Positions 1 to 53,914 of a DNA stretch of 64,000 nucleotides are shown piece after piece. Each line of letters opens with the position of its first letter. The first letter of the stretch is position 1. The notes below the pieces were generated by a model. That model saw only the letters and a program-made list of their open reading frames with translations. It searched no databases and was not told where the DNA came from. The DNA lies in the NCBI GenBank assembly GCA_918797485.1, contig CAKKNE010000004.1:5022001-5086000 (forward strand). Reading direction: 5' to 3'. Made by a program: the position numbers and the translations under genes. This DNA is from Pelagomonas calceolata. Lineage: Eukaryota > Sar > Pelagophyceae > Pelagomonadales > Pelagomonadaceae.

Positions 1-2642
1 TCGAGCTCGACCACGGCGCCGCCGCCGCGGCGTGCTGCTTCTGCCGCGGCGGCGAGCCGCGGGGCGCGGGCGACGCGCGGCCGCCCGTCCTCGTCGCGGC
101 CGGCGGCGACCAGCTCCGGGTCTGGGACCTGGAGACGCGCGCGCTCCTCCACGTCGAGAAGCGCGTCGGCGGCGTCGCGGCGCTCCACGCCGGCGGCCTC
201 GCCGGGGGGCCGACGGGCGCCGACGCCGTCGTCGTCACGTCCGTCGGGGCGGACGCGAAGCAGTGGGCGCTGGACGCGTCGGACGGCGCGCCGCGGCTCT
301 GCCGGCGGCGCGACGGGCTCGGCGGCGCGCCCGCGGTGGTGCGCTGGTACGGCCCGCCCGAGAGCGGCGGCGCGGTCGCGGGCGCGTCCGGCGACGCGTA
401 CGGGTCGCTGCAGCTGCTCGTCGCCGCGCCCCGGGACCGGAGCCTGCGGTGCCTGCACGCCGTGCGCGACCGGCTGAACGGCGAGCTCTCCCAGCGGGGC
501 GCCGCGGACGCGCGCGCGAAGCGGCTCCGGCTCGCGGACCCGAAGGCGCTCCGCCTGCCGCCCGTCACGTGCGTCGCGGCGGGCGACGCGAAGGACGGGA
601 GCTTCCCCAACGTCGTCACGTGCCACCGCGGCGAGCGCGTCGCGCGCGTGTGGTCGCTGGCGGAGCGGCGCCTCGCGGACCACTGCCTCACGCAGCCGCA
701 CTGGGGCGGGCGCGGGCGCGACGACCCGGGGCAGGTGGCCCGGCGGGACTCGGCGACGGCGTGCGACCTGAGCGCGTGCGGGAACTTCGCGCTGATCGGC
801 CACGAGGACGGCTACGTGCGCAAGTACAACGTCCAGTCGGGCGAGGCGCGCGGCACGTACCCCGCGTCGCTCGAGGCCGCGCGGCGCGTCGCGGACCGCG
901 CCGCGTCGGTCGCGGTGCCCGGCGCGGTGGCCCGGGCGGCGCGCGCCATCGCGCGGGTCACGCGCAAGGGCGAGGAGATCGCGCTCCGGGACGACGGCGC
1001 GGACCCGCGGACGGCCGGGGCCGCCGGCGCGCGCGCCTTCGCGCGGGGCAAGGGGCGGCAGCGGAAGCACCGGGGCGGCGTCGTGGGCGTCCACTGCGAC
1101 GCCGCGAACGCCTGGTGCGTGTCGTGCGGCGGCGACGCGGTCAAGTGGTGGTCCTTCGCGGACCACCGGGCGCGGGGGGCCCTGCGCGTCGACGCGGCGT
1201 GCGCGGTCACGGCCTTCGCGCGCGCGTCCGACCTCCTGGCCGTGGGCCTGGACGGCGGCGCCGTGCTGGTCCTGGACGCGCGGCCGCCCGACGCGGGCGG
1301 CGGCCGCGTCCTCCGGCGGCTCGGCACGCACGCCGGCCGGGCGGCGCGCGACCTGTCGTGGTCCGCGACCCGGCAGTCGCTCTACGCGGTCTGCGGGCGG
1401 GGCGCGCTCCACCGGTGGGACGTCGCGTCCGGCGCGTGCGTCGACCGCGTGGCGTTCGCCGAGGAGGCCGTCGCCGTCTCGGCGTCGCCGTCCGGCGAGT
1501 TCGTCGCGACGGCGCACGTGAGCGGCGCGCACGTCGCGCTCTGGACGGACAAGGCGGCCTACGGCCGCGTCGACGCCGCGCCGCTGGGCGAGGACGCGGC
1601 GCCCGCGCCCCTGCGGCCGCTCGCGCCGCGGGACCTGCTGGACGCGCGCGTGGACGTCGCGGCGGCGGCGGCCGACGACGCGGCGGCGATCACCCTGGAC
1701 GACGCGGCCCCCGCCGGCGCGGCGGCGGCGCCGCTCGCCGACGGCGTGCTCGCGGACGCGGCGCGGCGCGGCAGCATCCGGATGTCCGCGGACCCGGCGT
1801 CCTCGCGGGCGCGCATGGAGACGCTCTACGCCCTGGAAGCCGTCGCGGAGCGCAACCGGCCCGTCGCGCCGCCCAAGAAGCCCGAGGCCGCGCCCTTCTT
1901 CCTGCCGTCGGAGATGGACGCCCAGCGACGGGACGCCGCGCCGCCGCCGGCGCTGCCGCCGCCGCCGCCGGAGGACGACGCCTTCGCCGGCGACGACGGG
2001 AGCGACGCCGACGGGAGCGACGCCGACGGGGCCGTCGCGGGCGCCGCCGCCGAGGCGTCGCGCTGCCGCCTGGCGTCGCTCTCGCTCGCGGAAGACGCTA
2101 CAGACGTCGCTACGCACCTCGGCGCGCTCGGCGCCTCGGCCCTCGACGCCGAGATCGCGCTCCTGTGCCGCGGCCCCCACGACGCGCCGGGCGTCGAGCT
2201 CGTGCGGCGCTTCGCGGGGCACCTCGCCACGACCTGTGTGGAAATCAAATTTCGGGCGCCCACGCCATCGACGCGATGTTGTCTCCGTAGCTGCGTCTGC
2301 TCGATGGCGTGGAGTTTTCAGGCCATCGACGCGACCTTGTCGCCGCGACCGCGTCGGTTCGATGGCGTGGAGGTTCACAAAGGTCCACGCAATATTTCTC
2401 AGGATAACCTAACTCACTGGTTGATTTCCACACAGGCCACGACGCTCGAGACGCACGGCCACTTCGACGCCATCCAGGCGTATCTTCATAGACTGGTCCA
2501 GCACCACGCGGCCGTGCTCTCGTTGCCACAACTGCGAGGGCCGTTGGCGACGCTCGCCGCCGCACAGCGCGCCGCGGCGGCGCGGTTCCGGGGGCTCGTG
2601 CACGAGAACCTGTGCTTGCTGGAGGTGGCTACGGCGGACTAG
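1..2642 (+). CDS. WDR36: WDR36/Utp21 WD40 protein, 5' partial, one introner intron
   Basis: Component of the nucleolar small-subunit processome (UTP-B) needed for 18S rRNA maturation. The frame is open from base 3, so the N terminus lies outside the window. WD-type blades are visible (for example RVWDL and HRWDV). After them comes the Utp21 signature: ALEAVAERNRPVAPPKKPE followed by APFFLP, then an acidic linker and a helical C terminus rich in Leu/Ala. Exon 1 ends at 2225 and exon 2 is 2436-2642. The 210-bp intron between them is an introner with a GC-AG boundary. Its length is a multiple of three and it lacks an in-frame stop, so the reading frame also runs straight through it. Splicing gives a smooth ...HLA-TTLETHG... 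join typical of the helical tail. Family assignment is confident; the exact blade count cannot be given. Confidence 0.5.
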   Translation, partial: ELDHGAAAAACCFCRGGEPRGAGDARPPVLVAAGGDQLRVWDLETRALLHVEKRVGGVAALHAGGLAGGPTGADAVVVTSVGADAKQWALDASDGAPRLCRRRDGLGGAPAVVRWYGPPESGGAVAGASGDAYGSLQLLVAAPRDRSLRCLHAVRDRLNGELSQRGAADARAKRLRLADPKALRLPPVTCVAAGDAKDGSFPNVVTCHRGERVARVWSLAERRLADHCLTQPHWGGRGRDDPGQVARRDSATACDLSACGNFALIGHEDGYVRKYNVQSGEARGTYPASLEAARRVADRAASVAVPGAVARAARAIARVTRKGEEIALRDDGADPRTAGAAGARAFARGKGRQRKHRGGVVGVHCDAANAWCVSCGGDAVKWWSFADHRARGALRVDAACAVTAFARASDLLAVGLDGGAVLVLDARPPDAGGGRVLRRLGTHAGRAARDLSWSATRQSLYAVCGRGALHRWDVASGACVDRVAFAEEAVAVSASPSGEFVATAHVSGAHVALWTDKAAYGRVDAAPLGEDAAPAPLRPLAPRDLLDARVDVAAAAADDAAAITLDDAAPAGAAAAPLADGVLADAARRGSIRMSADPASSRARMETLYALEAVAERNRPVAPPKKPEAAPFFLPSEMDAQRRDAAPPPALPPPPPEDDAFAGDDGSDADGSDADGAVAGAAAEASRCRLASLSLAEDATDVATHLGALGASALDAEIALLCRGPHDAPGVELVRRFAGHLATTCVEIKFRAPTPSTRCCLRSCVCSMAWSFQAIDATLSPRPRRFDGVEVHKGPRNISQDNLTHWLISTQATTLETHGHFDAIQAYLHRLVQHHAAVLSLPQLRGPLATLAAAQRAAAARFRGLVHENLCLLEVATAD
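2234..2435 (+). mobile_element. Introner copy 1 (in WDR36)
   Basis: Ends are CTGTGTGGAAATCAA and its inverted complement TTGATTTCCACACAG. The 8-bp target duplication GCCACGAC is at 2226-2233 and 2436-2443. It is the longest copy and carries two inverted-repeat modules (CCATCGA...TCGATGG) instead of one. Intron 2226-2435, GC-AG. Confidence 0.5.
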
Positions 2643-8753: not shown

Positions 8754-8817
8754 TTCTTTTTATGTGTGTACGGAGAGCCGCGCCTGGCCGGACAGCGGCA
8801 CCTGGCGAATTATCGAT

Positions 8818-8877
8818 GTTACGGTGCTAGGACTAGTGGGCGGAGCCCCTGGGGGGGAGACACCGCGCGTCGCCGAT
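8818..8877 (+). terminator. 3'-flank motif copy A (candidate 3'-end element)
   Basis: Starts GTTACGGTGCTAGGAC and continues through GGCGGAGCCCCTGGGG. It lies 65 bp past the ATG10 stop, same strand. It matches the copy at 34240-34300 (opposite strand) over about 60 bp without a difference that I can see. Confidence 0.5.
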
Positions 8878-12100: not shown

Positions 12101-13160
12101 GCGGCGGACGACGAGGAGGCGGTGTGGCGGGCCGTCGCGGGCGGCGTGCACGTCTTCGCGCGCATGTCGCCCCAGGGCAAGGCCCGGATCTGCCGGTCGC
12201 TGCAGGCGCTGCACGACGCGCCCTCCGTCCTCATGTGCGGCGACGGCGGCAACGACGTGGGCGCCCTGAAGCAGGCCGACGTCGGCCTGGCGCTCCTCGC
12301 CGGGTACGGCGACGCGAACACCACCGGCCAGGGCGGGTACGCGGACGCCGGGGCCAAGCTCGCCGCGGCCAAGGGCGACTCGAGCGCGGAGGCGGTCCTG
12401 AACGCCCAGAAGGAGGCGCTCGAGGACGCGCACCGCGACGCCGGGCAGCGGCGCAAGGCCGGCATCGACGCCGCCCAGAAGGACATGGCCGCGAAGCAGA
12501 AGGAGTGGCTCGAGGAGGAGATCCGGCGGCGCGAGCAGCGGGGCGAGACGGGCTTCCTGGCCCAGGCCGGCGCCATCAAGGACGTCGCGCTGCGGATGAA
12601 GCGCGAGATGGAGGTCGAGGTGCGGAAGATCGACCGGGGCCTGGGCAACGTCTACGACGAGCAGCTCGGCGGCGAGGCGCCGAAGGATCCGATGGCGGCC
12701 GCCCAGAAGTTGCTGGGGGGCCTGGACGACCCGAACGGCCCGCAGATGATCCGGCCGGGCGACGCGTCCGTCGCGGCGCCGTTCACGTCGCGGGCGCCGT
12801 CGATCCGGGCCGTGGTGGACCTGATCCGGCAGGGGCGATGCACCCTGCTGTCGTCCCTGCAGCAGCAGCAGATCATGGTCCTGGAGAGCGTGATCTCGGC
12901 CTACACGCTGGCGGCGCTGTCGCTCGAGGGCGCGCGGTCGTCGGAACGGCAGATGATGGCGTCGGGCTGGCGCGCGGGCCGCGTCCCGCGCGACGCCGAC
13001 CCCCGCGTCTCCCCCGCGCACACGGCGCGGTCCGCGCGCAGGTTGCTCGTCGTCGCGTCGCTCGCCTTCTCGTACGCGACGCCCCTCGAGTCGATGCACC
13101 CGATCCGGCCGCTCGGGTCCCTGTTCCACCCGTCGATCTGCGCCGGCCCGCGCGGAAATC

Positions 13161-13195
<35 letters not shown>

Positions 13196-14000
13196 CCCGC
13201 GCGGCGGGACGGGCGCCTCGAGGTTCGAGCGCCGCGCAGGCGCCAGCGTGGCGGGCCAGGGCGCCATCCACGTCTACTGCATGCGGCGGGCCGTCAAGAT
13301 GGCGACCGCGCGCATGGGCGACTCGGCCCTGCGGGCCGTGGTGCGGTTCCAGCGCAAGGCGCGGGCCGGCGAGCTCGCCGACGACACCGGCGACGAGGAC
13401 GACCCCTTCGCGTTCGTCACGTCGATGTGGGCCACGCCGTTCCTGCCGAACCTGCTGAACACCGCCGTATTTCTGGTGGAGACCTCGCAGATGGTCGCCG
13501 TCCTCTTCGTGAACTACAAGGGCCGGCCCTGGATGAAGGGGCTGTCGGAGAACCACGCGCTCTTCCTCTCGCTCTTCGTGAGCATCGGCGGCATCTGCCT
13601 CTGCGCCTGGAACGTGCTGCCGGAGGTCAACGCCGCCATCCACCTCTCGCCGTTCCCCGACGACCAGTTCAGGTTCGAGATCGTGGGCCTGGTGCTCGCC
13701 TCGTTGTTTGGGACGTTGCTGTGGGACCGGTTCTGCACGCTCGTCTTCGCGCCGCGGATCTTTCGGGCGCAGTTGGAGGAGTTCAAGAAGATCACGCTGG
13801 CGGACCTGGAGCCGATCCTCGTCACGCTCCTCAAGGTGCTGGGCGTCATGTTCGTGCTGTCGACGGGCAACCTGCTCTTCTACGGGGCGGCCTTTTACTT
13901 GTATAGACAGCACAAGAAGCGCGCCGCGCACGAAGAGAAGCTGGCGAAGCAGAAGATCATCAAGGGGGAGGCGGCGCCGCCGATCGAGGCGGCGGACTAG
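9130..14000 (+). CDS. ATP13A1: P5A-type ATPase (ATP13A1/Spf1), five exons
   Basis: ER membrane P-type ATPase; the P5A family removes mis-inserted transmembrane helices. Exons: 9130-~9573 (or ~9585), 9639-10322, 10427-12960, 13042-13139, 13240-14000. Introns 2 to 4 are GC-AG, GT-AG and GC-AG; the last is an introner. Visible features: N-terminal hydrophobic hairpins (AAACLFLFLVLTFHALYH), the phosphorylation motif DKTGTLTTD, MCGDGGNDVGALK in the P domain, and a coiled insertion typical of P5A before SVAAPFTSRAPSI and QGRCTLLSSLQ. C-terminal membrane helices follow, with a basic tail. A charged coiled coil inside the N-terminal region (AKLQRQKAQKLVEQL) is longer than I expect. The first 5' splice site is ambiguous. 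Confidence 0.5.
13148..13239 (+). mobile_element. Introner copy 12, with a (GA)n microsatellite
   Basis: Target duplication GCGCCGGC/GCGCCAGC (one mismatch) at 13140-13147 and 13240-13247. The left end CCGCGCGGAAATCCA is a decayed form of the introner end. A GA dinucleotide run fills about 13165-13194. Intron 13140-13239, GC-AG. Confidence 0.5.
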
Positions 14001-14263: not shown

Positions 14264-14395
14264 CTGTGTGGAAATCAAATTTTACGGCGCTTTCGTGCTG
14301 AATCATCGCGTCGTCCTCCACGCCATCGATGCGACGCCTGCTCGATGGCGTGGCGATGCCGGTTCCTCGCCGCTCGACCGAGCCATGACGGCCGC
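14264..14395 (-). mobile_element. Introner copy 3, truncated
   Basis: One intact end (CTGTGTGGAAATCAAATTTT) and the internal hairpin are present. Similarity to complete copies stops near GGCCGCGTCAT at about 14390-14399; the expected CACTGGTTGATTTCCACACAG end is absent. About 60 bp of element is missing, and so is the second target copy. Confidence 0.5.
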
Positions 14396-16820: not shown

Positions 16821-19800
16821 ATGTTGCACGAAGTCATCACAGTAACCATACAAGAAAACCAGCGCAAAGTGCCGATGCGAGGCTACAGCGCGGGTCATCT
16901 CCTCGCGCTCTCGGACCCGCCGGCGTACAAAGGTCCGGACGGATCGCGAGGAAAAGTGCCGGACGCCGCGGCGCCGCTGGCCGACGGCGAGCGCTGGGTC
17001 GACGACGGCTGGCGCGTTTCGATCGGCGACGAGACGGACGCGGACGGCTGGCGCTACGCGCGGACCTTCGGCGCCACGGGTCACGCGACGCGCGGCCTCA
17101 CCGACGTCTGTCGCTTTCGCACGTGGACGCGCGCGAAGAAGCGACTCGTGGCGCTCGACACGGGCCTGCCGACCGCCGAGGCCCCGCCGGCGCCGCCGGC
17201 CGCCTCGCCGCCGCCGCCGGAGATCCCGCCAGAAAAGGCCTTCGCGCGGGCCATGGCCATGGCGCCGGCGGACCGCCACGCCCGGGTCGTGGCGCTGGCG
17301 ATGCAGATCTCCGTCGCCGACGCCGCCGCGGACGCGAAGGAGCGCGCGACCAGGGCACGGTCCGCCGAGGCGAAAGCGGCTCTGGAGGCCGAGGCCGAGG
17401 CGTGCCGGCGCGAGGCCGCGACTGCCCTGGAGTTCGCGCAGAAGCTCGAGGGCGCCGCGCGCACCCTCAAGCTCGCCGCGGCGGCCGCGGCGACGGCGCG
17501 GGAGGCGACGGCGCGGAAGCGGCTCGCGCTCCCGGACTACGATCCGGCGAACGTCCTGCGCGGCGAAGACGGGCTGTGCGTCGGCGTGAAGGACGCGACG
17601 CTCGAGCGCTGCGCGGGGCGGCTGGTTGTCAGCGCCGAGCCGACGGAGGCCGGTGCGCGCGCGACGCTCGAGGCGCTCGGCGACGACGACGACGGCGCCA
17701 CGGTGGAGGTCGTTGTCGAGGGACTCGTGGTCGTCAGCGGCAAGGGGTCGCGCATCCCGACGGTGCGCGTCCGGCGCGTCAATCTGCGGGCGCGGGCCAC
17801 CTGGAGCGCCGCCGTCGCCTGCATCAGTGTGGAAATCAACCAGTGCGTCGGAAGCACCCGACAATTCTTCACTAAGTCATGCACCGCGCCGTAAAAATTT
17901 TGATTTCCGCGCACAGGCCTGCGTCGAGGGCCAGTGGACCATAGAGGCCTTCAAGGCGTCGATCAGGCGCTGGTCGGCGCCAGGGACGTTGTCGCGGACC
18001 GCGGCGCGCGCGGTCCTCAAGCTCATGCTACCGACGCTGCGGGACGCCCTGCGCCGCTCGTTGCCTCCGGAGCTCGGGGAGTTCTTCGCGAGCCTACGGG
18101 GGCCCTTTCGGGCGGAGGGCTCGTTCGACGTCCGGGCGGCGCCGCCTACGGCTGTCGCGTCCGCGCCGCTCGACGGCGCCTCGTCAGAGGCCGAGGCCGC
18201 GCGAAGGCTCGTCGGCTGGACGCGCGCGCAGGCTTCCGCCTTCGCGGAAGGTCGAAATGTTATCTTCGGCGGCGGCCGCAAGAAGAAGGAGCTCCCTCCG
18301 ATGGCCTCGCTCGCTGACGTGGGCGCGTATCTCCGGCGCCACGAGCCGCCGCCCGCGCCGCCGGCAGCCGCGTCGCGGTTGCCGCGGGAGCGCTCCAGTG
18401 CAAACGGAGGACGGCCCGTCGGCGCCCTCTGGACCGAGGCCGCCGCTTTGCTATCCGCGGCGGCTCCCGCGGGCCAACGCTGGAGCTGGACGGACGTCGC
18501 CGGCGCCGCGACGCGCTTGCGGCGGCGCCCGTGCGAAATGAGGCTGCGCCTGCCGACCATCGCCGGGGCGGTGCCATTGAGACTGGCGCATCGCCTCTTT
18601 TGGGACTATCAAGCGCGCGTGGTTGCGGCCGAGGACGTCTCGGGCGTCGCGGCGCAAAACGTGGCACTTCTGCGAGAGCGCGGCGCGTCGAGCCTCACGC
18701 TGCTCGCCGAGAAAATTAGATGTGCCCAAGGCGTCGTCTCGTTGGTCGTCGATGACCGCAGCACTCGTGCGGAAATCGATTGTTCTTCGCCACTAGATTC
18801 TCGGCGACGACGCGACTGGGACTCTGGTCATTTCCGCACAGGTGGCGACTCGGCCCTGAGGATTAGCTCGGCCACCGTCGAGAGCCCGGCGCCCCAACCT
18901 TTCGATGCGCGAAGCATCATCGTCCGTCCCGAGGGCGACGTGCCGTACGAGGTCCGGGCGCGTCCCTACTCCGAGACGAGCGCCGCGTGTGATGCCGCCG
19001 TCGCGTTCGACGACGCGCCGCGTGTGCTGACGCCGACGCAATTCGATGACGACGACGACGAGGAGGATGAGGAGGAGGAGGACAGCCGCGACGGCGCCGC
19101 GACGCCGCCGCCGCCGCCGTCCGCGCCGGTTGAGAGCGTTACAGTCGTCGACGACGACGCCGGCGGAGACACTGCGCCGGAAGACGACGGCGCGGGGGCG
19201 CCGGACGGCGTGGCCGTCGAGATTTGCCGCGAAGGCGACGAGGCGTGGCTCTCTGCCGCGGTGCGCAAGGCCACGATGTCCTTCAAGGCGACCGGACCGC
19301 CAGTCAACGGCAGTGTACACATCACATTTCTCGGACCCGACTCACTGTGGTTGATTTGCGCACAGGTCACCGGCACGGCGGCCGTAGGCCGGATAGGGGT
19401 GGGCGGCCTCTCCGTCGAGATCAACCAAGGACTGAGCGTCGTCCTCGAGATCGCGGACGCCGCGATCCGCGGCCGCACCGTCGCGATCCTACGGGAGCTC
19501 GCCGACGTGTTCGCGGCGCCCGACGCGCTCCGTAGCTGGTGGCCCGGCCCCGTCGACACCGCCTCGTGTGATGAAGCGGTCCAAGTCCTCGACCTGCTGC
19601 GGCGCAACGGCCGCGGCGAGGGGAAGTGGCTCCGCTTCGCCGTAGACGTCGCCGGGACGCTTCGAAAGGACGGCGACGACCTGATCCTGGCCGGCACCGC
19701 CACGCAAGGCGTGCGCGTCGACGCGGCGGGGAACGCGCGAGACGTGCTACTGGACGCCTCCATCCTCGGCGACGCGATCCGGCGCCGACGGCTCCTCGAG

Positions 19801-20710: not shown

Positions 20711-22160
20711 ATGGCCGACTTCGCTGCCGATCGCGGCGAGGAGGGCCCGAGGTGCCGCGTCGAGCAGTGCCTCGCGCCGCCGACGAACGGGCCGGCGCCG
20801 GACGAGAACGCCGCGATTTGCTCGGTCGCCTTCGATCAGACGGGCGCGTGGCTCGGCGTCGGCGACCGCGGCGGCCGCGTGCGCGTCTACGCGCGGCGCG
20901 GGCCGCGCTACGCGCCCTTCTGCGCGTTCCGGAGCCACGAGCCCGAGTTCGACTTCCTGAAGAGCCTCGAGGTCGAGGAAAAGGTCTCCCAGCTCCAGTT
21001 CTGCGGCGGGCGCGGCGACCGGTGCGGCGTCCTGGCCGCGAACGACCGCACGATCAAGCTGTGGTCCGTGGGCGAGGAGCGCGTCGGCGCGCGCCTGGAG
21101 AACACGAACCGGGAGCACGGCTACGACGAGCTGCGCGTGCCGCGCCTGGTCGGCGGCGCGCCGCAGGCCCGGGCCCGGGCGCGGGCGACGTACGCGCGCG
21201 AGCACGCGTACCACGTCCACTCGCTGAGCGTGTGCGCCGACGGCGAGACGTTCCTGTCCGCGGACGACCTGCGGGTCAACCTCTGGCGGCTGGACGTGGC
21301 GGATCGGTGCTGCAACGTCGTCGACGCGAAGCCGCCGAACATGGAGGACCTGGCGGAGGTCATCACGACGGCGCGCTTCCACCCGGTCGAGGGGCACACC
21401 CTGCTCTACGCCTCGTCGCGCGGCGCCGTCCGGCTCTTCGACCTGCGCGCCGCGGCGCGCTGCACGCGGCCGAGCCTGGTCCTCGACGCCGCGGCGCGGC
21501 GGCCGCCCGCGCCGGGGGGCGAGGACGACGCCGCGTCGTTCTTCGCGGAGATCGTGGCCTCGGTCTCGGACGCGCGCTTCGACGGCGACGGCCGCTTCGT
21601 CGTGACCCGCGACTTCCTGTGCTGCCGGACCTGGGACGTGCGGCGCGCCCGCGAGCCCGTGCACGCCGCCGGCGTCCACGACCACCTGCGCCCGAAGCTC
21701 GCGGACCTCTACGAGGCCGACCGCATCTTCGACAAGTTCGAGGTGTGCGCCTGCCGGGGCGACGGCGCCGTGGCGACGGGCGGCTCCCCGTGTGGAACTC
21801 AAATGTTACGGCGCGTTTGATTCTTCCCGTCAACCTCGAGGCCATCGACGCGACGCCTGCTCGATGGCGTGGCGATGCCGGTTCCTCGCCGCTCGACCCG
21901 ACACACTGGTTGATGTCCACACAGGCGGCTACGGGCGGTGCGCCGTGCGCGACGCCGCCACGGGGCTGGCGCTGGACGCGGAGCTCGTCGACGCGAACGG
22001 CGCCGCGCCGCCGCGCGTGCCGCAGTCCGGCGCGCCGGCGGACGCGATCGACGCCCCGGACGCGTCGAACCGCGTCCTCCACGTCGCGGCGCACCCGCGC
22101 GAGGAGACGTTCGCCGCGGCGCGCGGCGGCGAGTGCTACCTCCTGAAGGTGCATCGGTGA
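20711..22160 (+). CDS. PPP2R2A: PP2A regulatory B55 (PR55) WD40 subunit
   Basis: Exons 20711-21779 and 21925-22160; 434 aa, the usual B55 length. B55 targets the PP2A catalytic core to substrates in mitosis and signalling. Diagnostic stretches are EPEFDFLKSLEVEEKVSQLQ, NDRTIKLW, YHVHSLSVCADGETFLSADD, RVNLWRLDV and YEADRIFDKFEVCACRGDG. The last blade is interrupted by an introner; splicing at GC-AG gives VATG-GYGRCAVRD in frame. Head-to-head with SRP9. Confidence 0.5.
21788..21924 (+). mobile_element. Introner copy 5 (in PP2A B55)
   Basis: Ends CCGTGTGGAACTCAA and TTGATGTCCACACAG. Target duplication GCGGCTCC/GCGGCTAC at 21780-21787 and 21925-21932. Carries the CATCGA...TCGATGGCGTGG hairpin. 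Intron 21780-21924, GC-AG. Confidence 0.5.
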
Positions 22161-27703: not shown

Positions 27704-28754
27704 TTAGTTGTTTAGGCTCCCCGTCATGACTCCTAGCGCGCCCCGGATCAGCTCCGGGATCCCCAGGTCCGCGTCGACGTCGTCGTACGACGTCAGCGTC
27801 GTGTCGTCGCTTTCCTTCGTGTAGACGTACAGGTTGTCGTCGACGTCCCTCGAGACGCGGACGTCTCCGTCGCAGTAGGTCGTCGTGAAGATGGGAAACG
27901 GTCGGTCTATCGGGAGCGCGTCGTTGACGCGGCGCGAGTCCAACTTGAGGCCGTTGTCGAGCAGCGGCCGCAGCAGGGGTATGTTGCTGCCCTTCACCTC
28001 GACCTGTGCGAATCAACCAGTGAGTGGGGTGAACGCGCCGTGAAATTTTGATTTATGCACAGACCTCGACGTCGGCCATCTCGAGCGTCTTCTCGAGGCC
28101 CCTCGGAGTTTCCGTCGTCGCGGTGATGTCGGCGGAGGAGACGATCGACCCAAATATCGTCACCGGCATGCTCCCCCCGACCCGCATCGGCGCCGCCGCG
28201 ACGCTGGTCTCGAACTCGCTCACGAGGCGGCCCGGCGCCACGATCTGGCGCACCGCGCCGATTTCGGACACCATGGTGGCCTTACGATGCTGGTCGCAAA
28301 ACCAGTCGTAGCGCCTCGCCTCTTCGCCGTCCTGGCAGGCCGCCCGCCCGGCCATCCAGAACGGGCTCGACCTGAAGAGGTACGTCGAGCAATACGCCAG
28401 GTTCCAGCGGCCATTCAACAGCTGCGCGTCCGTCGGCGCCCCTTGCGCTTCCAGCCGCCGGGCGACATCGTTCACCGCCTCGTTCGGCCGCTTGTCTAAT
28501 TGCTGGCCGCGGGCCGTGCGCGAGACCGCGAGCAGCAGCTCCTTTTTGAGGCTCTCCCTGTCCTCGACCCGGGGCACGTCGATCACGTCAGGAGCGGCAT
28601 CCTCGGCCGAGTCCGACGGCCAGTCGCCCTCGCCTTCCGCCATCGATCGCAGCGGTGGCAGGTGCATCGCCGGCGCGAGTTGCGGCACAAGAAAGCCACT
28701 CGTGGTTGTTGCCGCTGCCGTCATCAATGCCACGAGGACATGCGTTGCTGCCAT
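27704..28754 (-). CDS. Plastid lipid-associated protein (PAP/fibrillin family)
   Basis: Exons 28754-28071 and 28003-27704; 327 aa. Start MAATHVLVALMTAAATTTSG followed by FLVPQL is a plastid presequence with a Phe after the signal region. KKELLLAVSRTARGQQLDKR and LLNGRWNLAYCSTYLFRSSP are the fibrillin motifs; the tail contains the usual second strand set (RPFPIFTTTYCDGDVRVSRD). Fibrillins bind lipids in plastoglobules and thylakoids. The intron is a short introner, GT-AG in gene orientation, and its removal joins MADVE to VKGSN. It ends 12 bp from the convergent membrane protein gene. Confidence 0.5.
28004..28062 (-). mobile_element. Introner copy 7, short
   Basis: Perfect target duplication ACCTCGAC at 27996-28003 and 28063-28070. 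Ends CTGTGCGAATCAACCAG and TTTTGATTTATGCACAG. Only the two ends remain; the internal hairpin is lost. Intron 28004-28070. Confidence 0.5.
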
Positions 28755-31416: not shown

Positions 31417-33322
31417 TCATCGCGCGCCAGCCGCCCCCTCGGCGAGCGGCGGCAGCGACACGCTCCGCGAGTCGACGCTGCCCGACGCGACCGAGCCCGA
31501 GTCGCCCGTGACCGAGCTGTCGGCGGTCACGTAGGAACTCCCGGATGTCAGCGTGCTCCCGTCGTCGTGCTTCCTCCTCCGCCGCGTGAGCGGCGTGTCC
31601 GGCGGCAGACCCGCCGCCGTGGCCTGCTCGCGCGCCTCGGCCTCGGTCCGCGCGCGGAAGTAGCCGTCGTAGCCGTCGGCGTACCACTTTTTCTTCTTGT
31701 TCTTCTTGCTCTTCGTCGAGCCGGAGCCCTTCGACGCGCCGCCGTACATCTTCTCGCCCTGCTCCTTGGCCCACTGCTCCACGAGGGCCTCCGCGAGCTT
31801 GAACGCCGCCGGGTCCAGCTCGTAGGCCTTCTCGCCGCAGTTGTTCGCGATCTCCTTGTCCGCGCCCAGGTGCAGGATCGTCGCCACGAACGACGCGCTC
31901 CTCTTGTGCCGCAGGGCCATGTGGAGCAGCGTGTCGCCGGGCCGCGGCGGGAACGGCTCGGGGTCGATGCCGAGGCGGACGTAGAAGTCGCCGTAGTACC
32001 AGGACGCGCCGCCCTTGACCCGCGAATTCAGGTTGATGACGCCGTCCTCGTGGGTCGGCGCCGTCGCCGTGTACGCGGCCCGGAGCGCCTGCGTGGAAAT
32101 CAAATTTCGGCCGCCCCGCGCCGTCGACGCGACGTCGTCCCCGCGACCGCGGCAGCTCGATGGCGTAGAGTTCCGCACGGCGGAGCGCCTTGAAGTCGTT
32201 GGCCGCGAAGGCGCGCATGCACCGCCGGCCCCAGCCCTGCCGCTTTTCGACCTGGGGCGCGCCCGTCACGCTGCTGCGCGAGCGCCGGTTCGTCGTCAGG
32301 TCCTCCAGCATCGCCTGGTCGCGCACGAAGTAGTAGCCCACGCCCGCGCCGCCCGCCTTGTACCGCCAGCCGGGCGGGTCCTGGGGCAGCGGCATCGGCG
32401 ACTCGAGGAACTCGACGTCGGCCTCCTCCGCCCGGGCGAAGTCCGCGGGCGTCAGCGTCTTGACGGCCTTGTCGGCCGCGCCCGGCGCGACGCCGCCGCT
32501 CGCCCGCGCGTACTTCGAGGGCCGGTGCCACCGCCGCCCGCCGTGCCCGCCGCTGTAGTCGTAGGCCACGAGCGGCCGGTCGTCGTCGCTCTCGGGCTCC
32601 TCGGCCAGCGTGTCCAGCCCGCCCTGCTGCCGGCGCTGCGCGTTCGCCTCGGCCTTCTCGCGCCACTTCTTGGCCATCGCCGCCATCTCCGGGGTCATCG
32701 TCTTCTCGACCTTGTCCTCGCGCGCCTCCATGACCTCGCGGAGCTCCCGCCGCTTCTGGATGAAGGACGCCTCCGCCGACAGGACGCCCGCGGGGCCGTC
32801 GCCCCCGGCCGCGTCCTGGCCCTTCTTCACGGCCGACAGGTCGGCGACCATCTGGCCGCCCGACTCCGCGCTGATGCTCCGCTTCCGCGGCACGTTGCGC
32901 ACGGGGCCGTCGAGCCCCAGGTACTCGCGCACCTCCGCGCTCGTGAGGTGCACGCCCCCCCCGGGCTCGTGCTGCTTGAGCTCGCGCGCGGTCAGCTTCC
33001 GGCCCAGCTTCATCTCGCGCTCGAAGATCTTCGCCTCGCGGTCGGCCGCGAGCATCTCCTCCGCCGTCGCGACCTGCCGCGCCTTGGCCGCCGCCTCCTC
33101 GCGGACCCGCTGCTTCTTGAGGATGAACGGCTTCGCGATGACGAAGGGCGCCACGGTCGAGAAGTTGCTGCCGTGGCGGCCCGTGTCCGCGTAGCTGCCC
33201 CGGGACGAGCTGCCGTGGCTCCGGGTGCTCCGCGAGCCCTTGGAGCCCTTGGAGCCCTTGGAGCCCTTGGAGCCCGCGGTCCTGTGGGAGCCGAGGGAGG
33301 CATGGGACTTGTCGTCCGCCAT
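31417..33322 (-). CDS. Unknown ankyrin-like protein with low-complexity ends
   Basis: Exons 33322-32189 and 32088-31417; 601 aa. It starts MADDKSHASLGSHRTAGSKG with GSKG repeats and a Ser/Arg tract. A charged central part has coiled segments (REEAAAKARQVATAEEMLAA; KKWREKAEANAQRRQQ). After the introner junction, GDTLLHMALRHKRSASFVAT followed by LHLGADKEIANNCGEKAYEL reads as one or two ankyrin repeats. A Lys-rich patch (KSKKNKKKKW) and a Ser/Thr tail end the protein. No catalytic motif seen. Confidence 0.5.
32089..32180 (-). mobile_element. Introner copy 8
   Basis: Target duplication CGGAGCGC at 32081-32088 and 32181-32188 (GCGCTCCG in gene orientation). Ends CTGCGTGGAAATCAAATTT and TTCCGCACGG. 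Intron 32089-32188, GC-AG, joining KALR to AAYTAT in frame. Confidence 0.5.
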
Positions 33323-34446: not shown

Positions 34447-37400
34447 TTAAGAACCCGCGTCGAACGCGAGCAGCTTCGCCTCCACGACGCCGGCCATGGC
34501 GCTCGTTGCGCGCTCCGCCGCGGCGAGGACGTCGCCGCCCTCGGCGTACGCGGCGCGCGCGGCCGCCCGGAGTTCCGTGTTCACGTTAAACTTGCAGACG
34601 CCGGCCGAAATCGCCCGCGAGATGACTCGCTGCGACAGGCCCGACGCGCCGTGAAGCACCAGGGGGACGTCGCCCGCCGCGGCGCGCACGGCGTCGAGCC
34701 GCGCCCAGTCCAGGTCCGGATCGCGCGAGGCGTAGGCGCCGTGCACGTTGCCGACCGTCACCGCGAGGGCGTCGACCCGCGTGCGCGCCAGAAATGCCGC
34801 CACGATCGCGGGGTCCGTCATCCTCGCGTCCCTCTCGTCCACGGAGAGGCCGTCCTCCTCGCCCGCGAGGCGCCCGAGCTCCGCCTCGACCGAGACGCCC
34901 GCGGCGCGCGCGCGCGCCGCGACCGCCGCGGTCCACCGCTCGTTCTCTCCCACGTCGAAGCGCGACCCGTCGGCCATGACGTGGTCGACGGCCTCGAGAT
35001 GCGGGTAGATCCGGCCGGGGTCCTCGCAGTGGTCCAGGGCCACGAAGAGGGGCACCTCCGCGGCGTCGGCGAGGCGCCGGCACGCCGCCAGCAGCGCGGG
35101 CCCGCCGTGGTCGAGGGCCGCCGGGTGCAGCTGCACGATGGCCGCGCGCCGCGCCGCCGCGGCGCCCCGCGCGACGGCGAGGGCCCCCTCCAGCGTGTAG
35201 ACGTTGAACGCGCCGAGCGCGCGGCCCCTGCCGCGCGCGTCGACGAGCGCCTCGACGCAGGTCATCTTCGGGGACGCGGCCGGCCGCCGCCTGCGCGGGG
35301 CGCCGGGCGTCCCCGCGCGCGATCGACCCCGCGGCGGACGCCGGCCCCGGACGCGCCGGCCACGGTCTCGACGACGTTCGCCAGGTCGTCCGCGTCGCCC
35401 ACGTTCCCGGGGAAGACGACGTACGACGCGCCCGGCAGGCGCGACTCGCGCCCGAGCCGCCACGCCGGCACGCCGGCGACGACCTGGCCGAGCACGTCCG
35501 CGCGGCGGACCCCCAGCGACTTGACGGCGACGTCGTTCGACGTGATGCCGCCCTTGGCGACGACGAAGGCCGGCGTGGCCCGCTCCACGACCCGCGCGGC
35601 GACGGCGCAGAGGGCCTCGTTCACCTTGGCGCCGATCACGAGGCCCCCGGACCCGTCGTCCTGCTGCACGCGGCGCGACGTGAAGACGCAGGCCGACCGG
35701 CCCGCGCCCAGCGCCGCCGCGGCGGCGGCGGACGCGCGGGCGACCGCCCCCTCGGCGTCGGCGAGGACCTCGCCCACGTCCACCTCGACCGCGTCGAGCC
35801 AGCCGCACCGCCGGCGCAGCTCCGCGAGCTGCGCGGAGGTCTTCTGCGTGTACGACCCGACGACCACGAGGCCGCCGCCGCTCGAGGGCGAGAGCGCCTC
35901 GCGCCCGAGGAACGGCTTGGGCGGCATGCCCGTGAGCGCGGCCACGGCGCTCCCCGCGGACCGCACGACGACGCCGCCCCGCGCGTGCAGGGCGCCCCGC
36001 TGCGCCGCCATGGCCGCCTTGAGTCCGCTCGCGACGACCAGCATGTCCCGGTCCTCGAGGCCGTCGACGCAGACCGCGCGCACCGTCTCGTCCAGCAGCG
36101 CGGCCTCGAACGCGTCCTGGACGGCGCGGACCCCGCCGCGGATCGCGTGCAGCGACAGGTGCCACGTGTGCGCGTAGTCCGCGCTCCCGCGCGTCTTCTC
36201 CGCGACCCACTCGGCGAGGCGCGACCGCCGGTACCCGAAGGCGCGGTCCCGCGCGAACTCGGTCTCGCCGGCGGGCGTCGCCGGCCGGTCGCCGTCGACG
36301 GGCGCGCCCAGGACGTAGTGGACGCCGTCGGCCGTGACGCGCCCCCCGCCGAAGAACTGCGGCGCGACCAGGACGAGGGGCCGGCGCCAGCCCAGGCCGT
36401 CCGCGAGCGCGTCGACCTCGGCCGGGAAGTGGCCGCGCAGCGTCGAGTCGGACCGCGAGACGACGAGCCGCGGGCCGCCCCTGCGCAGCTCCCGCCCGAT
36501 CTCGCGGTTGCGCGCCACGGCCGCCGCCTCGTCGAGGGCGCGCGTGTTCGCCAGCAGGTAGAAGCACGACTTGTCCGACCGCAGCTCCCCGCTCAGGTCG
36601 GCCCAGTCCGCCCGGACGGCCACGCCGTGCACCGTCTGCGTGCCCGTGGGGTCGTCGTCGACGACCGGCAGGCTGGGCGACGCCTGCGCCGCCAGCGCCG
36701 CGCGGAGCGCCTCCGCGGTCGGGACGGCGTCGGAGAAGGGCGGCGCCGCCCGCGCCAGCTCGTTGGCGGTCGTCGGCCGGGCGAGGAAGCTCGGGACCGC
36801 CGCCCAGTCGCAGTCCGCGGCGCCGCGCGCGGCGGCCGCGGCCACCGTCTCCGCGGCGACGCGCACCGCCGGGAGGTCCAGCCCGCGGCCGGCCGCGGCG
36901 TCCCGGACGAGCGCGAGGTCCTTGGCGAAGTTCCGCAGCGGCGCCGCCGAGGACTCGAAGGCCAGCTGCGCGGGGTCCGCCCCGAGGCGCCGCGCCCCGC
37001 TCCGCGTGAGCATCGTCGACGCCGCCCAGGCCCCGTCGAGCAGCGGCAGCAGTTGTTCCAGGTCGCAGCCCAGCCCCTCCGCGAGCGCGAGCCCCTCGGC
37101 GGCGCCCTGCGCGTTCGCCGCGACCAGCGCCTGGTTCACGAGCTTGGCGCCCGCGCCGGCGCCCGCCGGGCCCAGCCGCGCAAACCGCGCGGCGATGGCG
37201 TCGAGGACGGGCGCCGCGCGCCGGACGGCGGCCTCGTCGCCCCCCAGGAACACCGCCAGGCTCCCGGCGGCCGCCCCCTCGGGCCCGCCCGACACGGGCG
37301 CGTCGAGGTAGGCGACGCCGGCGCCGCCGCACGTCTCGTGCGCCTCGCGCGCCCAGCCCACGCTCGAGGTGCCCAGGTTCAGGACCTGTGTGGAAATCAA

Positions 37401-37858
37401 CCAGTGTGTCGGGTGCGCCCGTGCTGGCTCCGTCGAGCGGTGAGGAACCGGCATCGCCACGCCATCGAGCAGGCGTCGCGTCGATGGCGTGGAGGTCGAC
37501 GCGACGATTCAGCACGAACGCGCCATAAAATTTTGATTTCCGCACAGTTCAGGACGAGCGGCGGGCGCGCCTCCAGGAGGTCGGCGACGACCGCGCGCTC
37601 GGCGGCCTCGTGCGGCAGGCTCAGGAGGACCGCGTCGGCGCGCCGGCACGCGGCCGCGACGGAGTCCACCGCCGTGATGGTCGATGGCCGTCGGAGGGTC
37701 TGGGCTCCGTCCGCGTCGTAGACGACGACGTCGTGACCGGCGCGCGCGAGCGACGCCGCGACGCCCCGTCCCATGTTGCCGTGACCGATCACGCCCACCT
37801 GCAGGTGCCGCCGCCGACCGACGACGCGGTGTCCCCGCAGGAGGCGCCGTGGCAGCAT
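34447..37858 (-). CDS. Trifunctional fusion: threonate-type dehydrogenase, four-carbon acid sugar kinase, class II aldolase
   Basis: Exons 37858-37556, 37385-35353, 35290-34447; 1059 aa. Part 1 (about 1-330) is a 3-hydroxyisobutyrate-dehydrogenase-like domain: [20 protein letters not shown] and [12 protein letters not shown], as in L-threonate dehydrogenase. Part 2 (about 335-775) is DUF1537 four-carbon acid sugar kinase: [15 protein letters not shown] and [14 protein letters not shown]. Part 3 (780-1059) is class II ketose-bisphosphate aldolase: [30 protein letters not shown] and LHGASGLSQ. Known bacterial pathways use these three activities in turn to convert threonate or erythronate to dihydroxyacetone phosphate. 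Plants have a related fusion, with a duplicated dehydrogenase. The presequence ([20 protein letters not shown]) may be mitochondrial. Confidence 0.5.
37386..37547 (-). mobile_element. Introner copy 9, near full length
   Basis: Perfect target duplication TTCAGGAC at 37378-37385 and 37548-37555 (GTCCTGAA in gene orientation). Ends CTGTGTGGAAATCAACCAG and TTTTGATTTCCGCACAG. Single CCACGCCATCGA/TCGATGGCGTGG hairpin. Intron 37386-37555, GT-AG. Best reference copy for the family. Confidence 0.5.
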
Positions 37859-47453: not shown

Positions 47454-48313
47454 CTAAGGCGGGTACCCCTCAGCGCCGTCGAGAAACGCGACCGCGTGGT
47501 CGACGAACGCCGCCTGGTCCGCCGGCGGAAGGCGGAAGACGCGGTTGACGACGTCGTGCAGGAGCGGCTGCTCGCGATCCGGCCGGTGCGGCGGCTCGAC
47601 GATCGCGACGTCGGACGCCCGAGAGAAGTCCGTGCGGCACGGCGCCACCGCCCAGCGGCAGGTCGGGTGCCGCGCCCCGAACGCGACCGCGGCGTCGCGG
47701 CAGACGCGGGGACAGTGCGCCGGCGAGCTCACGCAAAAGGCGCGCTCCACCTGTGTGGAAATCAAAATTTTACGGCGCGTTCTGAATCGTCGCGTCGACC
47801 TCCACGCCATCGATGCGACTCCTGCTCGATGGCGTGGCGATGCCGGTCCCTCGCCGCTCGACGGAGCCAGGATAGCACCCGACGCACTGGTTGATTTCCA
47901 CACAGCGCTCCACGCCACGCGCGCGGCACAGCTCCGAGAAGCGCTCGAGCTCCTCCCGCGTGTTGAGGGCGTCGTCGAGGACGACCGCGTCGCTTATGAG
48001 CGCGTCGGAGGACGCTCGGGAGTTTCCTTCCCGCAGGCGTCGTAAGATGACGGCACCCTCGGTCTCGCCCGTCTCCTCGTCCGTCGACGCGCCCGAGCCC
48101 ACCACGAACAGGTCCGCCGCCTCCGCTTTGGCCTGTGCGAAATCTGTGTGTCTCGGCCCCCGCGCCGTCCGCTGATTTCGCGCGGATAATTGCCAAATCG
48201 TACCCGTAGGCGACGCGGCCGCCGCCGCCGCCCCACACGACCGTCTCCCAGTTTGGGGCCCTTAGATGGAAGCCGTGCACGAGGACCGCCGTCTTCGCGT
48301 GGCCGCACGCCAT
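47454..48313 (-). CDS. DUF218/YdcF-like protein, three exons
   Basis: Exons 48313-48194, 48132-47914, 47750-47454; 211 aa. After splicing, DLAKAEAADLFVVGSGASTD is followed by LISDAVVLDDALNTREELER and AFCVSSPAHCPRVCRDAAV, the alternating strand-helix order of DUF218 proteins. These are small Rossmann-like proteins of uncertain, possibly cell-envelope or vacuolar, function. VVGSGAST near the N terminus and the Ser/His-rich loop (VSSPAHCPR) are candidate site residues. Both introns are introners, one old and one young, in different target contexts. The start could also be an upstream Met; 48313 was chosen at the codon-bias onset. Confidence 0.5.
47751..47905 (-). mobile_element. Introner copy 10, near full length, reversed
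   Basis: Perfect target duplication CGCTCCAC at 47743-47750 and 47906-47913 (GTGGAGCG in gene orientation). Ends CTGTGTGGAAATCAAAATTTT and GGTTGATTTCCACACAG. Relative to its gene it lies in the opposite orientation to copies 2 and 9. Intron 47751-47913, GT-AG. Confidence 0.5.
48133..48185 (-). mobile_element. Introner copy 11, decayed
   Basis: In gene orientation it begins CCGCGCGAAATCAGCGG and ends CAGATTTCGCACAG. Flanking 8-mers GCAATTAT and GCCAAAGC share 3 of 8 bases, so the target copy has drifted. Intron 48133-48193, GC-AG, restores DLAKAEAAD in frame. Confidence 0.5.
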
Positions 48314-49524: not shown

Positions 49525-49575
49525 CGGTGTACTCATAAAGTGAGAAAGTATTAAATCCGGGCCGACGGCGGGTCC

Positions 49576-52094: not shown

Positions 52095-52124
52095 AGTTGC
52101 AGGCTTGCAGCCGTCGGCAAGCCC

Positions 52125-52251
52125 AAGAGTGCGACTATCAGAGACCTCGCTGCTACAAGAGTGCGACTATCAGAGACCTCGCTGCTGCAAGAGTGCGACT
52201 ATCAGAGACCTCGCTGCTGCAAGAGTGCGACTATCAGAGACCTCGCTGTGA
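52125..52251. repeat. 32-bp tandem repeat, four units, before HisRS
   Basis: AAGAGTGCGACTATCAGAGA begins at 52125, 52157, 52189 and 52221. Units are near-identical (one C/A difference in the first). No spacers, so not a CRISPR array. It ends 4 bp before the HisRS ATG. Confidence 0.5.
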
Positions 52252-52254
52252 CGA

Positions 52255-53914
52255 ATGCGCGCAACCTGCGCAATGACGCTCCTCGCCGCTGTGCGCGGGC
52301 TGACGCCGCCAGCGAGGAGGCACGGCGTGTCGTGCCTCAGCGCGGCGGCCGGCGGCGGTCGCGCCAGCGCGGCGGTCGAGCAAAAGAAGGCACGCCCAGC
52401 GAGCACGGAGAAGCTCGACCTCGCGCCGCCGCGCGGCACGCGCGACGTCTACCCCGAGGACATGCGCGTCCGGAACTGGCTCTTCGGCAAGTGGCGCAGC
52501 ACGGCGAAGGCGTTCGGCTTTGAGGAGTACGACGCGCCCGTGCTGGAGAACGAGGCGTTGTACGTGCGCAAGGCGGGGGAAGAAGTCACGCAGCAGCTCT
52601 ACAACTTCGAGGACAAGGGCGGCCGCCGCGTCGCGCTGCGGCCGGAGATGACGCCCTCGCTGGCGCGGATGGTCATGGCCCGGAAGCCGACGCCGCCGCT
52701 CAAGTGGTTCTCGATCCCGCAGTGCTGGCGCTACGAGCGGACCACGAGGGGACGGCGGCGGGAGCACTACCAGTCGAACGCCGCGTAGACATCACGCGTC
52801 GAGGCGCCCCGGCGGCGCGGCGTCCGCTCGACGGCGGGCGAGGGGGGGGGGGACGCTCGCGAAGGACCGAGACGCCGTCGCAGGTGGAACATGGACATCT
52901 GGGGCGTCGACGGCGCCGCGGCGGAGGCGGAGGCCCTGGCGGCCATGGTCTCGTTCATGGAGAGCGTCGGCCTGACCTCGGACGACGTGGGCATCAAGGT
53001 CAACTCGCGCGCCGTGCTGGCGGAGCTCCTGGCGCGGACGTGCGGCGTCGACGCCGCGGCGGACGCGGCGCGCTTCGCGGCGTGCTGCGTGCTGGTCGAC
53101 AAGCTGGAGAAGGTGCCGCCCGAGGCGCTGCACGGCGACTTCGGCGCGCTCGGCGTGGCGGCGGCCGACGTCGACGCGCTGGCCGCCGTGCTCCGGGACG
53201 CGGCCGACGCCGGCGGCTCGCTCGCGGCCCTCGAGGCGCTGATCGGCGACGGGCCCGCCCTGTCGAACCTGCGGGCGCTCGTCGACCTGGCCGAGGCGGG
53301 CGGCTTCGGGGACTGGATCGTGGTCGACGCGTCGGTCGTCCGAGGGCTCGCGTACTACACGGGCGTCGTGTTCGAGGCCTTCGACCGCCAGGGGGCGCTG
53401 CGGGCCATCGCGGGGGGCGGGCGGTACGACCGGCTCCTCGAGACGTTCGGGGGGGACCCCCTGCCCGCCGTCGGCTTCGGCTTCGGCGACGCCGTGATCA
53501 TGGAGCTGCTCGAGGAAAAAAAGCTCGTCCCGGAGACGTCGGCGGGCGTCGACGTCGTCGCCTTCGCGCTGGCGACGGGCGACGGCGACGAGGACGCCGC
53601 GTCCCTCAAGGCGCTCGCGGGCGTCGCGGCGACGCTGCGATCGTGCGCTGCTGTGTGTGCAGATCCGACGGCGCGGGGCGCCCGAACTTTGGTTTCCACG
53701 CAGGAGCGGCGCCTCGGTCGACGTCGTCCTCGAGCCCAAGAAGCCCAAGTGGGCCTTCAAGCACGCCGACCGGCGCAATGCCAAGGCCGCAGTCATGCTC
53801 GCGCCCTCCGAGTGGGCCGAGGGCCGGCTCGTCGCGAAGGACCTGAAGACGGGCGACCAGGCCGATGTCGTAGTGGAGGAGCTAGCGGCGTGGGTGGGGG
53901 CAAGGGAGGACTAA
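52255..53914 (+). CDS. HARS1: Histidyl-tRNA synthetase
   Basis: Exons 52255-52772, 52884-53642, 53704-53914; 495 aa. Class II synthetase. [33 protein letters not shown] (motif 1 region), [17 protein letters not shown] (motif 2), then after splicing [28 protein letters not shown] (HisA), [13 protein letters not shown] and GFGFGD (motif 3). The anticodon-binding domain is completed by exon 3 ([20 protein letters not shown]). The N terminus [20 protein letters not shown] (Met at 52273, possibly the true start) suggests dual or organelle targeting. Intron 2 is a decayed introner. Confidence 0.5.
53651..53703 (+). mobile_element. Introner copy 16, decayed
   Basis: Left end CTGTGTGTGCAGATCC, right end TTGGTTTCCACGCAG. 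Flanking 8-mers GTGCGCTG (53643) and GAGCGGCG (53704) match at 5 of 8. Intron 53643-53703, GT-AG. Confidence 0.5.

What the first reader, a model, noticed from the sequence alone, without database searches (positions are those of the whole stretch)
2226..53711. Introner family in which the target-site duplication supplies the 5' splice site
At least 18 introns share ends related to CTGTGTGGAAATCAA and its inverse, with 8-bp flanking duplications (perfect in copies 1, 2, 6, 7, 8, 9 and 10). In all 17 copies where both ends can be placed, the upstream duplicate begins GC (9) or GT (8) in gene orientation, and the element's last two bases are AG. Deleting element plus one duplicate restores the reading frame in each, for example PP2A B55 VATG-GYGRC and DUF218 RARG-VERAF. 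Introners with this logic are established in Aureococcus; here a single window shows many insertions into unrelated genes.
Basis: partly seen in the sequence, partly recalled or inferred. Interest (0 to 1): 0.85.

Follow-up and report, generated by a model that had tools for sequence, protein, structure and literature searches.

The report
Transposon introns borrowing their 5' splice site
A short DNA transposon has inserted into many genes of an oceanic alga, almost certainly Pelagomonas calceolata, and behaves as a removable intron whose start signal comes from the DNA duplicated at insertion; the principle is known from a related alga, and here some copies appear present in some wild genomes and absent in others.

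Summary
The window holds 9 well-supported copies (TSD at least 7/8) plus about 5 weak candidates, not 18. Copies are 55-206 bp with 15-bp inverted ends CTGTGTGGAAATCAA and an 8-bp duplication. Assembly statistics point to Pelagomonas calceolata RCC100; 1,562 exact ends occur genome-wide.

A codon model called the gene strand independently, with confidence for 54 of 64 sampled copies. In 54/54 the upstream duplicate begins GT (39) or GC (15); the mirror test at its other end gives 15/54. The element's 3' AG is intact in 54/54. Both element orientations occur. 49/54 copies would break the reading frame if unspliced.

Orthologous empty sites exist for all three genes examined (PP2A B55, UTP21, a dehydrogenase fusion). 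For two of them, empty and filled forms both occur at 97-100% identity, which suggests introns segregating in the wild. Some UTP21 forms carry an introner at a second place in the same exon.

Co-option of the donor from the TSD is supported. The mechanism is published for Aureococcus (Huff 2016), and the P. calceolata genome paper mentions introner-length introns, so this is a new member of a known kind. RNA-seq was not available, and no transposase with matching ends was found.

The parts
2226..2435 (+). Introner copy 1 in the UTP21-like gene: donor TSD copy GCCACGAC 2226-2233, element 2234-2435, second TSD copy 2436-2443; GC-AG
   Evidence: TSD 8/8, both ends perfect; frame and strand; empty alleles P0241 and P0243
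7294..7492 (-). Introner copy 2: element 7294-7484, donor TSD copy (GCGGCGAG in gene orientation) 7485-7492; GC-AG
   Evidence: TSD 8/8; frame and strand
13140..13239 (+). Plausible tenth copy: TSD GCGCCGGC/GCGCCAGC, degenerate ends; GC-AG
   Evidence: TSD 7/8, end score 20 of 30, just above the best decoy at 19
14264..14278 (.). Perfect element end; partner end degenerate, intron bounds and gene strand not settled
17817..17916 (+). Introner copy: TSD GCCTGCAT/GCCTGCGT; GC-AG
   Evidence: TSD 7/8, open joined frame
19303..19365 (+). Short introner copy: TSD GTCAACGG/GTCACCGG, element 55 bp; GT-AG
   Evidence: TSD 7/8, open joined frame
21780..21924 (+). Introner copy in PP2A B55: TSD GCGGCTCC/GCGGCTAC, element 21788-21924; GC-AG
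   Evidence: TSD 7/8; alignment; empty site P0001, filled P0002
27515..27599 (+). Weak candidate: TSD GTCGCGGG 8/8 but poor left end and two stops in the joined flanks
28004..28070 (-). Short introner copy: element 28004-28062, donor TSD copy (GTCGAGGT) 28063-28070; GT-AG
   Evidence: TSD 8/8, open joined frame
32089..32188 (-). Introner copy: element 32089-32180, donor TSD copy (GCGCTCCG) 32181-32188; GC-AG
   Evidence: TSD 8/8; frame and strand
37386..37555 (-). Introner copy in the 3-hydroxyisobutyrate dehydrogenase / sugar kinase / aldolase fusion gene: element 37386-37547, donor TSD copy (GTCCTGAA) 37548-37555; GT-AG
   Evidence: TSD 8/8; empty P0121, filled P0128-P0137
43965..44028 (+). 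Weak candidate: TSD 5/8
47751..47913 (-). Introner copy in a DUF218-like gene: element 47751-47905, donor TSD copy (GTGGAGCG) 47906-47913; GT-AG
   Evidence: TSD 8/8, both ends perfect; DUF218 match at E 3.1e-5, below the Pfam cut-off, spans the junction
53643..53703 (+). Weak candidate: TSD 5/8, right end TTGGTTTCCACGCAG

Best explanation
The copies are a family of short non-autonomous, MITE-like DNA transposons (full length about 203 bp, with shorter derivatives) that act as introners. Insertion duplicates 8 bp of the target. Both ends read ...CACAG outward, so in either orientation the element brings its own 3' splice site. The 5' splice site is the GT or GC at the start of the upstream duplicate. 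Splicing from that GY to the element's AG removes one duplicate plus the element and restores the mRNA as it was before insertion. Insertions whose duplicate does not begin GY on the coding strand are mostly lost by selection. Shown here: anatomy, copy numbers, strand-specific GY, intact AG on the downstream side, frame restoration, empty orthologous sites, filled and empty forms of the same gene. Inferred: splicing itself, mobilisation by a transposase, and selection as the filter.
For: 54 of 54 copies with a confident independent strand call begin GY; mirror positions 15 of 54. GT favoured over GC at the donor end only. Genome-wide, 1,495 of 1,562 exact ends have GY at -8/-7 or RC at -2/-1, against 32% for random octamers. 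The A of the AG is intact in 54 of 54 downstream ends and changed in 6 of 54 upstream ends. Both orientations occur, 24 and 16, with 14 untyped. 49 of 54 copies would shift the frame or add a stop if unspliced. Empty orthologous sites: P0001, P0121, P0241, P0243.
Against: No RNA evidence was available; P0122-P0127 look like cDNA without the introner but could come from empty alleles. 67 of 1,562 exact ends have neither GY nor RC and were not examined. 12 of 60 fetched stretches gave no pair under the criteria. 5 of 54 copies, window copy 2234 among them, could be read through in frame. The 6/54 against 0/54 contrast at the two ends is modest (p = 0.027).
Confidence: 0.92

Rival explanations
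1. The element carries both splice sites: a donor inside its left end (CTGT|GTGGAA) leaves the 8-bp TSD copy plus 4 bp, 12 nt or four residues, in the mRNA, as reported for one Aureococcus sp. family (PMC9860276, Fig. 2F legend).
For: GT stands at element positions 5-6 in 50 of 54 and at 3-4 in 52 of 54 upstream ends; a 12-nt addition would also keep the frame.
Against: It predicts no constraint on TSD positions 1-2, yet GY is 54 of 54 against 15 of 54 at the mirror end. Four of 54 have GC instead of GT at positions 5-6. PP2A B55 aligns without a gap at the junction, though a 3-residue gap follows four residues later; empty-site proteins have no residues missing or added there.
Confidence: 0.03
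2. GY reflects only the transposase's target preference, for example a hAT-like GTnnnnAC; the elements are not spliced from the TSD.
For: Hermes, a hAT, prefers nTnnnnAn, with targets such as GTGTACAC (PMC2803484, passages). A at TSD position 7 is 18 of 54 (p = 0.004).
Against: A palindromic preference would give RC at positions 7-8 as often as GY at 1-2; it does not (15 against 54 of 54). In perfect TSDs A at position 7 is 9 of 32 (p = 0.16), and AC is not favoured over GC at the mirror end. GY follows gene strand while element orientation varies.
Confidence: 0.03
3. The copies spread as RNA, by reverse splicing of released introns, as proposed for ascomycete introner-like elements.
For: Proposed for fungal families without TSDs or TIRs (PMC9860276, section 8).
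Against: Terminal inverted repeats, 8-bp duplications and both orientations relative to the gene are signs of DNA transposition; reverse splicing would keep one orientation.
Confidence: 0.02

Closest known systems
Aureococcus anophagefferens introners (Huff, Zilberman and Roy 2016, Nature; not held; recalled, with short descriptions in PMC7789003 and PMC9860276)
   Same: Pelagophyte host; short non-autonomous elements with TIRs and fixed-length direct repeats; canonical splice motifs (PMC7789003 passage). From recall: 8-bp TSD, 3' splice site carried by the element, 5' splice site from the TSD.
   Different: Sequence relation not tested, as no Aureococcus DNA was at hand. Different species; here filled and empty forms occur at 97-100% identity.
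Pelagomonas calceolata introner-length introns (PMC9481584)
   Same: Very probably the same genome and the same introns: the paper reports an intron length peak near 210 bp and likens it to Aureococcus introners (passages).
   Different: The main-text passages seen give no ends, TSDs, donors, copy numbers or empty sites; Supplementary Note 3 could not be read here.
Symbiodinium microadriaticum introners (PMC9860276, Fig. 2B legend)
   Same: TIRs, 3' splice site carried by the element, 5' splice site from the TSD.
   Different: 4-bp TSD; other lineage.
Aureococcus sp. MAG introner family 4 (PMC9860276, Fig. 2F legend)
   Same: 8-bp TSD, related host.
   Different: Carries both splice sites and adds 12 bp to the mRNA; here the mRNA appears unchanged.
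hAT superfamily MITEs
   Same: 8-bp TSD; ends with C-x-G-x-G invariant in 128 of 128 ends; one hAT gene is present in the genome.
   Different: Position 2 is T in 121 of 128 ends, where hAT ends as I recall them have A; the resident hAT has other TIRs.

Membership tests
Introner (TSD-co-opting DNA-transposon type) | Many sequence-similar introns in unrelated genes of one genome | tested here: met
   1,562 exact ends, none for the reversed pattern; copies in unrelated genes
Introner (TSD-co-opting DNA-transposon type) | Terminal inverted repeats and target site duplication | tested here: met
   64 pairs with TSD of at least 6/8, which was the selection criterion, 36 of them 8/8
Introner (TSD-co-opting DNA-transposon type) | Element carries one splice site, the other comes from the TSD | tested here: met
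   GY 54 of 54 and AG 54 of 54 in gene orientation; mirror control 15 of 54
Introner (TSD-co-opting DNA-transposon type) | Insertion and splicing leave mRNA length unchanged | tested here: met
   Three of three genes examined against empty-site proteins show no residue change at the junction; sequence level only, not RNA
Introner (TSD-co-opting DNA-transposon type) | Recent gain: empty orthologous sites | tested here: met
   P0001, P0121, P0241, P0243
Introner (TSD-co-opting DNA-transposon type) | Splicing shown by RNA-seq | not testable with these tools
   No reads at hand; P0122-P0127 are cDNA-like but could come from empty alleles
hAT superfamily | 8-bp target site duplication | tested here: met
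   36 of 64 pairs are 8/8; the 8-bp length was assumed in the search
hAT superfamily | Canonical end C/T-A-x-x-G (recalled) | tested here: not met
   C, G and G invariant at 1, 3 and 5, but position 2 is T in 121 of 128 and A in 1
hAT superfamily | Target preference nTnnnnAn (PMC2803484) | tested here: inconclusive
   A at mirror position 7: 9 of 32 perfect TSDs, p = 0.16; 18 of 54 overall, p = 0.004
hAT superfamily | hAT transposase in an element with the same ends in the genome | tested here: not met
   One hAT gene found, its element has TIR CAGGGCAGCAGAAGG; other hAT genes below the search's reach are not excluded

The most novel reading that the evidence does not exclude
The family descends from a hAT-type MITE in which the second terminal base became T. 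That single change turns both ends into CACAG 3' splice sites, so an insertion on a GY target is a working intron in either orientation. The family is still mobile in wild Pelagomonas, with filled, empty and doubly hit forms of single exons segregating.
Probability: 0.3. Interest if true: 0.75.

Novelty: new member of a known kind. Interest (0 to 1): 0.5.

Why it matters
Intron gain is usually inferred long after the event. Here one marine alga holds a large family of introns of one kind (at least about 1,260 copies if each contributes at most two of the 2,516 ends), and some sites have filled and empty forms at 97-100% identity. If these segregate within the species, the cost, splicing efficiency and fate of a new intron can be measured in nature. 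The mirror-end test separates selection for a donor from target preference using genome sequence alone, and can be applied to other introners with a long TSD.

Tried and rejected
Donor at the element's internal GT: rejected by the strand-specific GY. Target preference as sole cause: rejected by the mirror end.

Autonomous partner: PF13359, PF10551 and PF12762 gave nothing in the genome, and each of these rang in at least one control genome. PF21787 and PF18758 gave nothing, but no control genome rang either, so they say little. The one hAT gene found sits in an element at C4:4499549-4503199 with other ends. None of the 64 sampled pairs exceeded 206 bp, although up to 3,000 bp was allowed; 40 of the 60 stretches were only 1 kb, so longer elements could be missed.

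Viral relatives: two longer end patterns gave 0 contigs in viral contigs. Rfam at gathering threshold and ARAGORN gave nothing in the window.

GC-to-GT ageing of donors: 2 differences at TSD position 2, both GC in the downstream and GT in the upstream copy, and GC donors in 10 of 32 perfect against 5 of 22 diverged TSDs; too few to claim. A branch point in the TIR (TTGAT) was dropped because upstream and downstream ends conserve it alike.
Full report
WHAT WAS CHECKED. CTGTGTGGAAATCAA occurs 20 times in the window with up to 3 mismatches, against 0.33 in dinucleotide shuffles. In the genome there are 790 + 772 = 1,562 exact places and none for the reversed pattern; with one mismatch allowed, 1,261 + 1,255, with 2 for the reversed pattern. 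The genome has 32,445,274 bases in 8 contigs, two of them 90,574 and 39,373 bases. This fits the published P. calceolata RCC100 assembly: six nuclear contigs of 32.4 Mb, a plastid contig of 90 kb and a mitochondrial contig of 39 kb (PMC9481584, passages). The species name is an inference from these numbers.

COPIES IN THE WINDOW. Nine copies have both ends and a TSD of at least 7/8. As introns they are 2226-2435 (+), 7492-7294 (-), 17817-17916 (+), 19303-19365 (+), 21780-21924 (+), 28070-28004 (-), 32188-32089 (-), 37555-37386 (-) and 47913-47751 (-). All nine begin GY (5 GC, 4 GT) and end AG. A tenth at 13140-13239 is plausible.

SAMPLE. I fetched 60 stretches of contig C1, each chosen around an exact end from the list, and paired ends with at most 4 mismatches each and a TSD of at least 6/8. 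48 of the 60 stretches gave 58 pairs and 12 gave none; the window gave 6 under these criteria. That makes 64. Lengths are 60-206 bp, 16 of them 200-206. GY was not a criterion. The sample is from one contig plus the window.

GENE STRAND WITHOUT THE ELEMENT. A codon model self-trained on long open frames of the fetched DNA (G+C at third positions 0.89) was scored on the two flanks joined without the element and one TSD copy. In 54 of 64 the same strand and frame won on both sides, with a margin of at least 8 over the second best. In all 54 the upstream TSD copy begins GY in gene orientation, 39 GT and 15 GC. At the mirror positions 7-8, RC occurs in 15 of 54 (Fisher p = 4.6e-17). Of the ten other copies, 8 also begin GY on the better-scoring strand (62 of 64 overall). 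For nine genes a homology search was consistent with the strand: four in the window (the DUF218 match is below the Pfam cut-off) and L006, L007, L012, L018 and L019.

MIRROR-END CONTROL. GT is 30% of GY dinucleotides in this DNA. At the donor end it is 39 of 54 (p = 3e-10); at the mirror end AC is 6 of 15 RC (p = 0.41); the direct comparison of the two ends gives p = 0.03. Selection for a good donor explains this better than target choice. Genome-wide, GY stands at -8/-7 in 987 and RC at -2/-1 in 1,002 of 1,562 exact ends, both in 494, so 1,495 (95.7%) have one or the other, against 32% of random octamers. The 67 exceptions were not examined.

ACCEPTOR AND ORIENTATION. A 3' splice site is needed only at the downstream end. 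The A of AG is intact in 54 of 54 downstream ends and changed in 6 of 54 upstream ends (p = 0.027). The two ends have different inner sequences, A and B. In gene orientation 24 copies run B to A and 16 A to B; 14 could not be typed or had two ends of one type. So the element lies both ways round. If left in the mRNA, 49 of 54 would shift the frame or bring a stop; window copy 2234 (210 nt with its TSD, stop-free) is one of the 5 exceptions.

PROTEIN EVIDENCE AT JUNCTIONS. PP2A B55 aligns to 3dw8_B without a gap at VAT|GGYG; a 3-residue gap follows just after GGYG. The dehydrogenase aligns to 3w6u_A with a one-residue gap at [10 protein letters not shown]. Of five genes from other loci given to Pfam, a domain spans the junction in four (L006 zf-CW, L007 acyltransferase, L012 XRN_N, L018 Exo_endo_phos); in L019 (ABC1) the listed stretch does not reach it.

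EMPTY AND FILLED FORMS. PP2A B55: P0001, 84% identical and found on contigs up to 129,834 bases, reads straight through the site; P0002, 98.9% identical to the window DNA, ends inside the introner. Dehydrogenase fusion: P0121, 100% identical over the whole query, lacks the introner but reads into the next intron (35352-35291), so it is DNA rather than cDNA; P0128-P0137 start inside the introner; P0122-P0127 have the joined exons, and the two that were mapped (P0122, P0125) lack the next intron as well and look like cDNA. UTP21: P0241, 98% identical and on a 10,420-base contig, is empty; P0243, 75% identical, is empty; P0242, P0244, P0245 and P0247 are filled. P0246, P0247 and P0248 carry an introner at a second place in the same exon, after a VAT motif. 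These are clusters at 90% identity; member counts are not allele counts, sample origins were not seen, and the DNA of these contigs was not read. A close sibling lineage, rather than segregation within the species, remains possible.

MOBILISER. One hAT transposase gene was found (Pfam 22.3 bits against a cut-off of 21.4). It lies in a 3,651-bp element with 15/15 TIRs CAGGGCAGCAGAAGG and an 8/8 TSD. Its ends differ from the introner's, so it is probably not the mobiliser. The 8-bp TSD and the invariant C-x-G-x-G suggest a hAT link, but the A that I recall at position 2 of hAT ends is T here, and the target-preference test was inconclusive. The bold reading in the section on the most novel reading rests on this T, which makes both ends 3' splice sites.

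KNOWN WORK. Searches: 'introner' (67 papers, 40 listed); with Pelagomonas calceolata (1); at least two of Aureococcus anophagefferens, introner and target site duplication (12); Pelagomonas calceolata with intron (9). In what was seen, the mechanism is in print for other species, and for this one there is a sentence on intron length (PMC9481584, passages). Huff 2016 is not held, and the supplement of PMC9481584 could not be read. PMC9860276: sections 7 and 8 and passages. PMC7789003 and PMC2803484: passages. The mechanism is therefore known. What is added is the family description, the mirror-end test and the filled and empty forms.

Noticed in passing
G000:C4:4499549-4503199 (loci L061, L062, L063): An apparently intact single-copy hAT element (3,651 bp, TIR CAGGGCAGCAGAAGG 15/15, TSD TTGCTCGC 8/8) with a 721-aa open frame; the only match of PF05699 in this genome.
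   Followed up: partly
window 16619, 28901, 59603 (variant at 30538); L006 771 on the minus strand: A repeated motif CCTAGTGTCTTACAG followed by CGCTAGC; function unknown, possibly regulatory.
   Followed up: partly
window 8813-8877, 34240-34304, 51404-51438: A shared sequence TGTTACGGTGCTAGGACTAGTGGGCGGAGCCCCTG, the first two in inverted orientation and identical over 65 bp; no Rfam match.
   Followed up: no
window 22403-22792 and 45177-45566: A 390-bp inverted pair, 92% complementary, 22 kb apart.
   Followed up: no
window 23072-23500; 52124-52250: Tandem repeats: three copies of about 142 bp, and a 32-bp unit repeated about four times.
   Followed up: no
window 34450-37858, minus strand: A fusion gene of 3-hydroxyisobutyrate dehydrogenase type, four-carbon acid sugar kinase and class II aldolase domains, with a 62-bp GT-AG intron at 35352-35291; Aureococcus and Chrysophaeum proteins share the layout.
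   Followed up: partly
UTP21 homologues P0246, P0247, P0248: A second introner site in the same exon of natural variants, not present in the window.
   Followed up: partly
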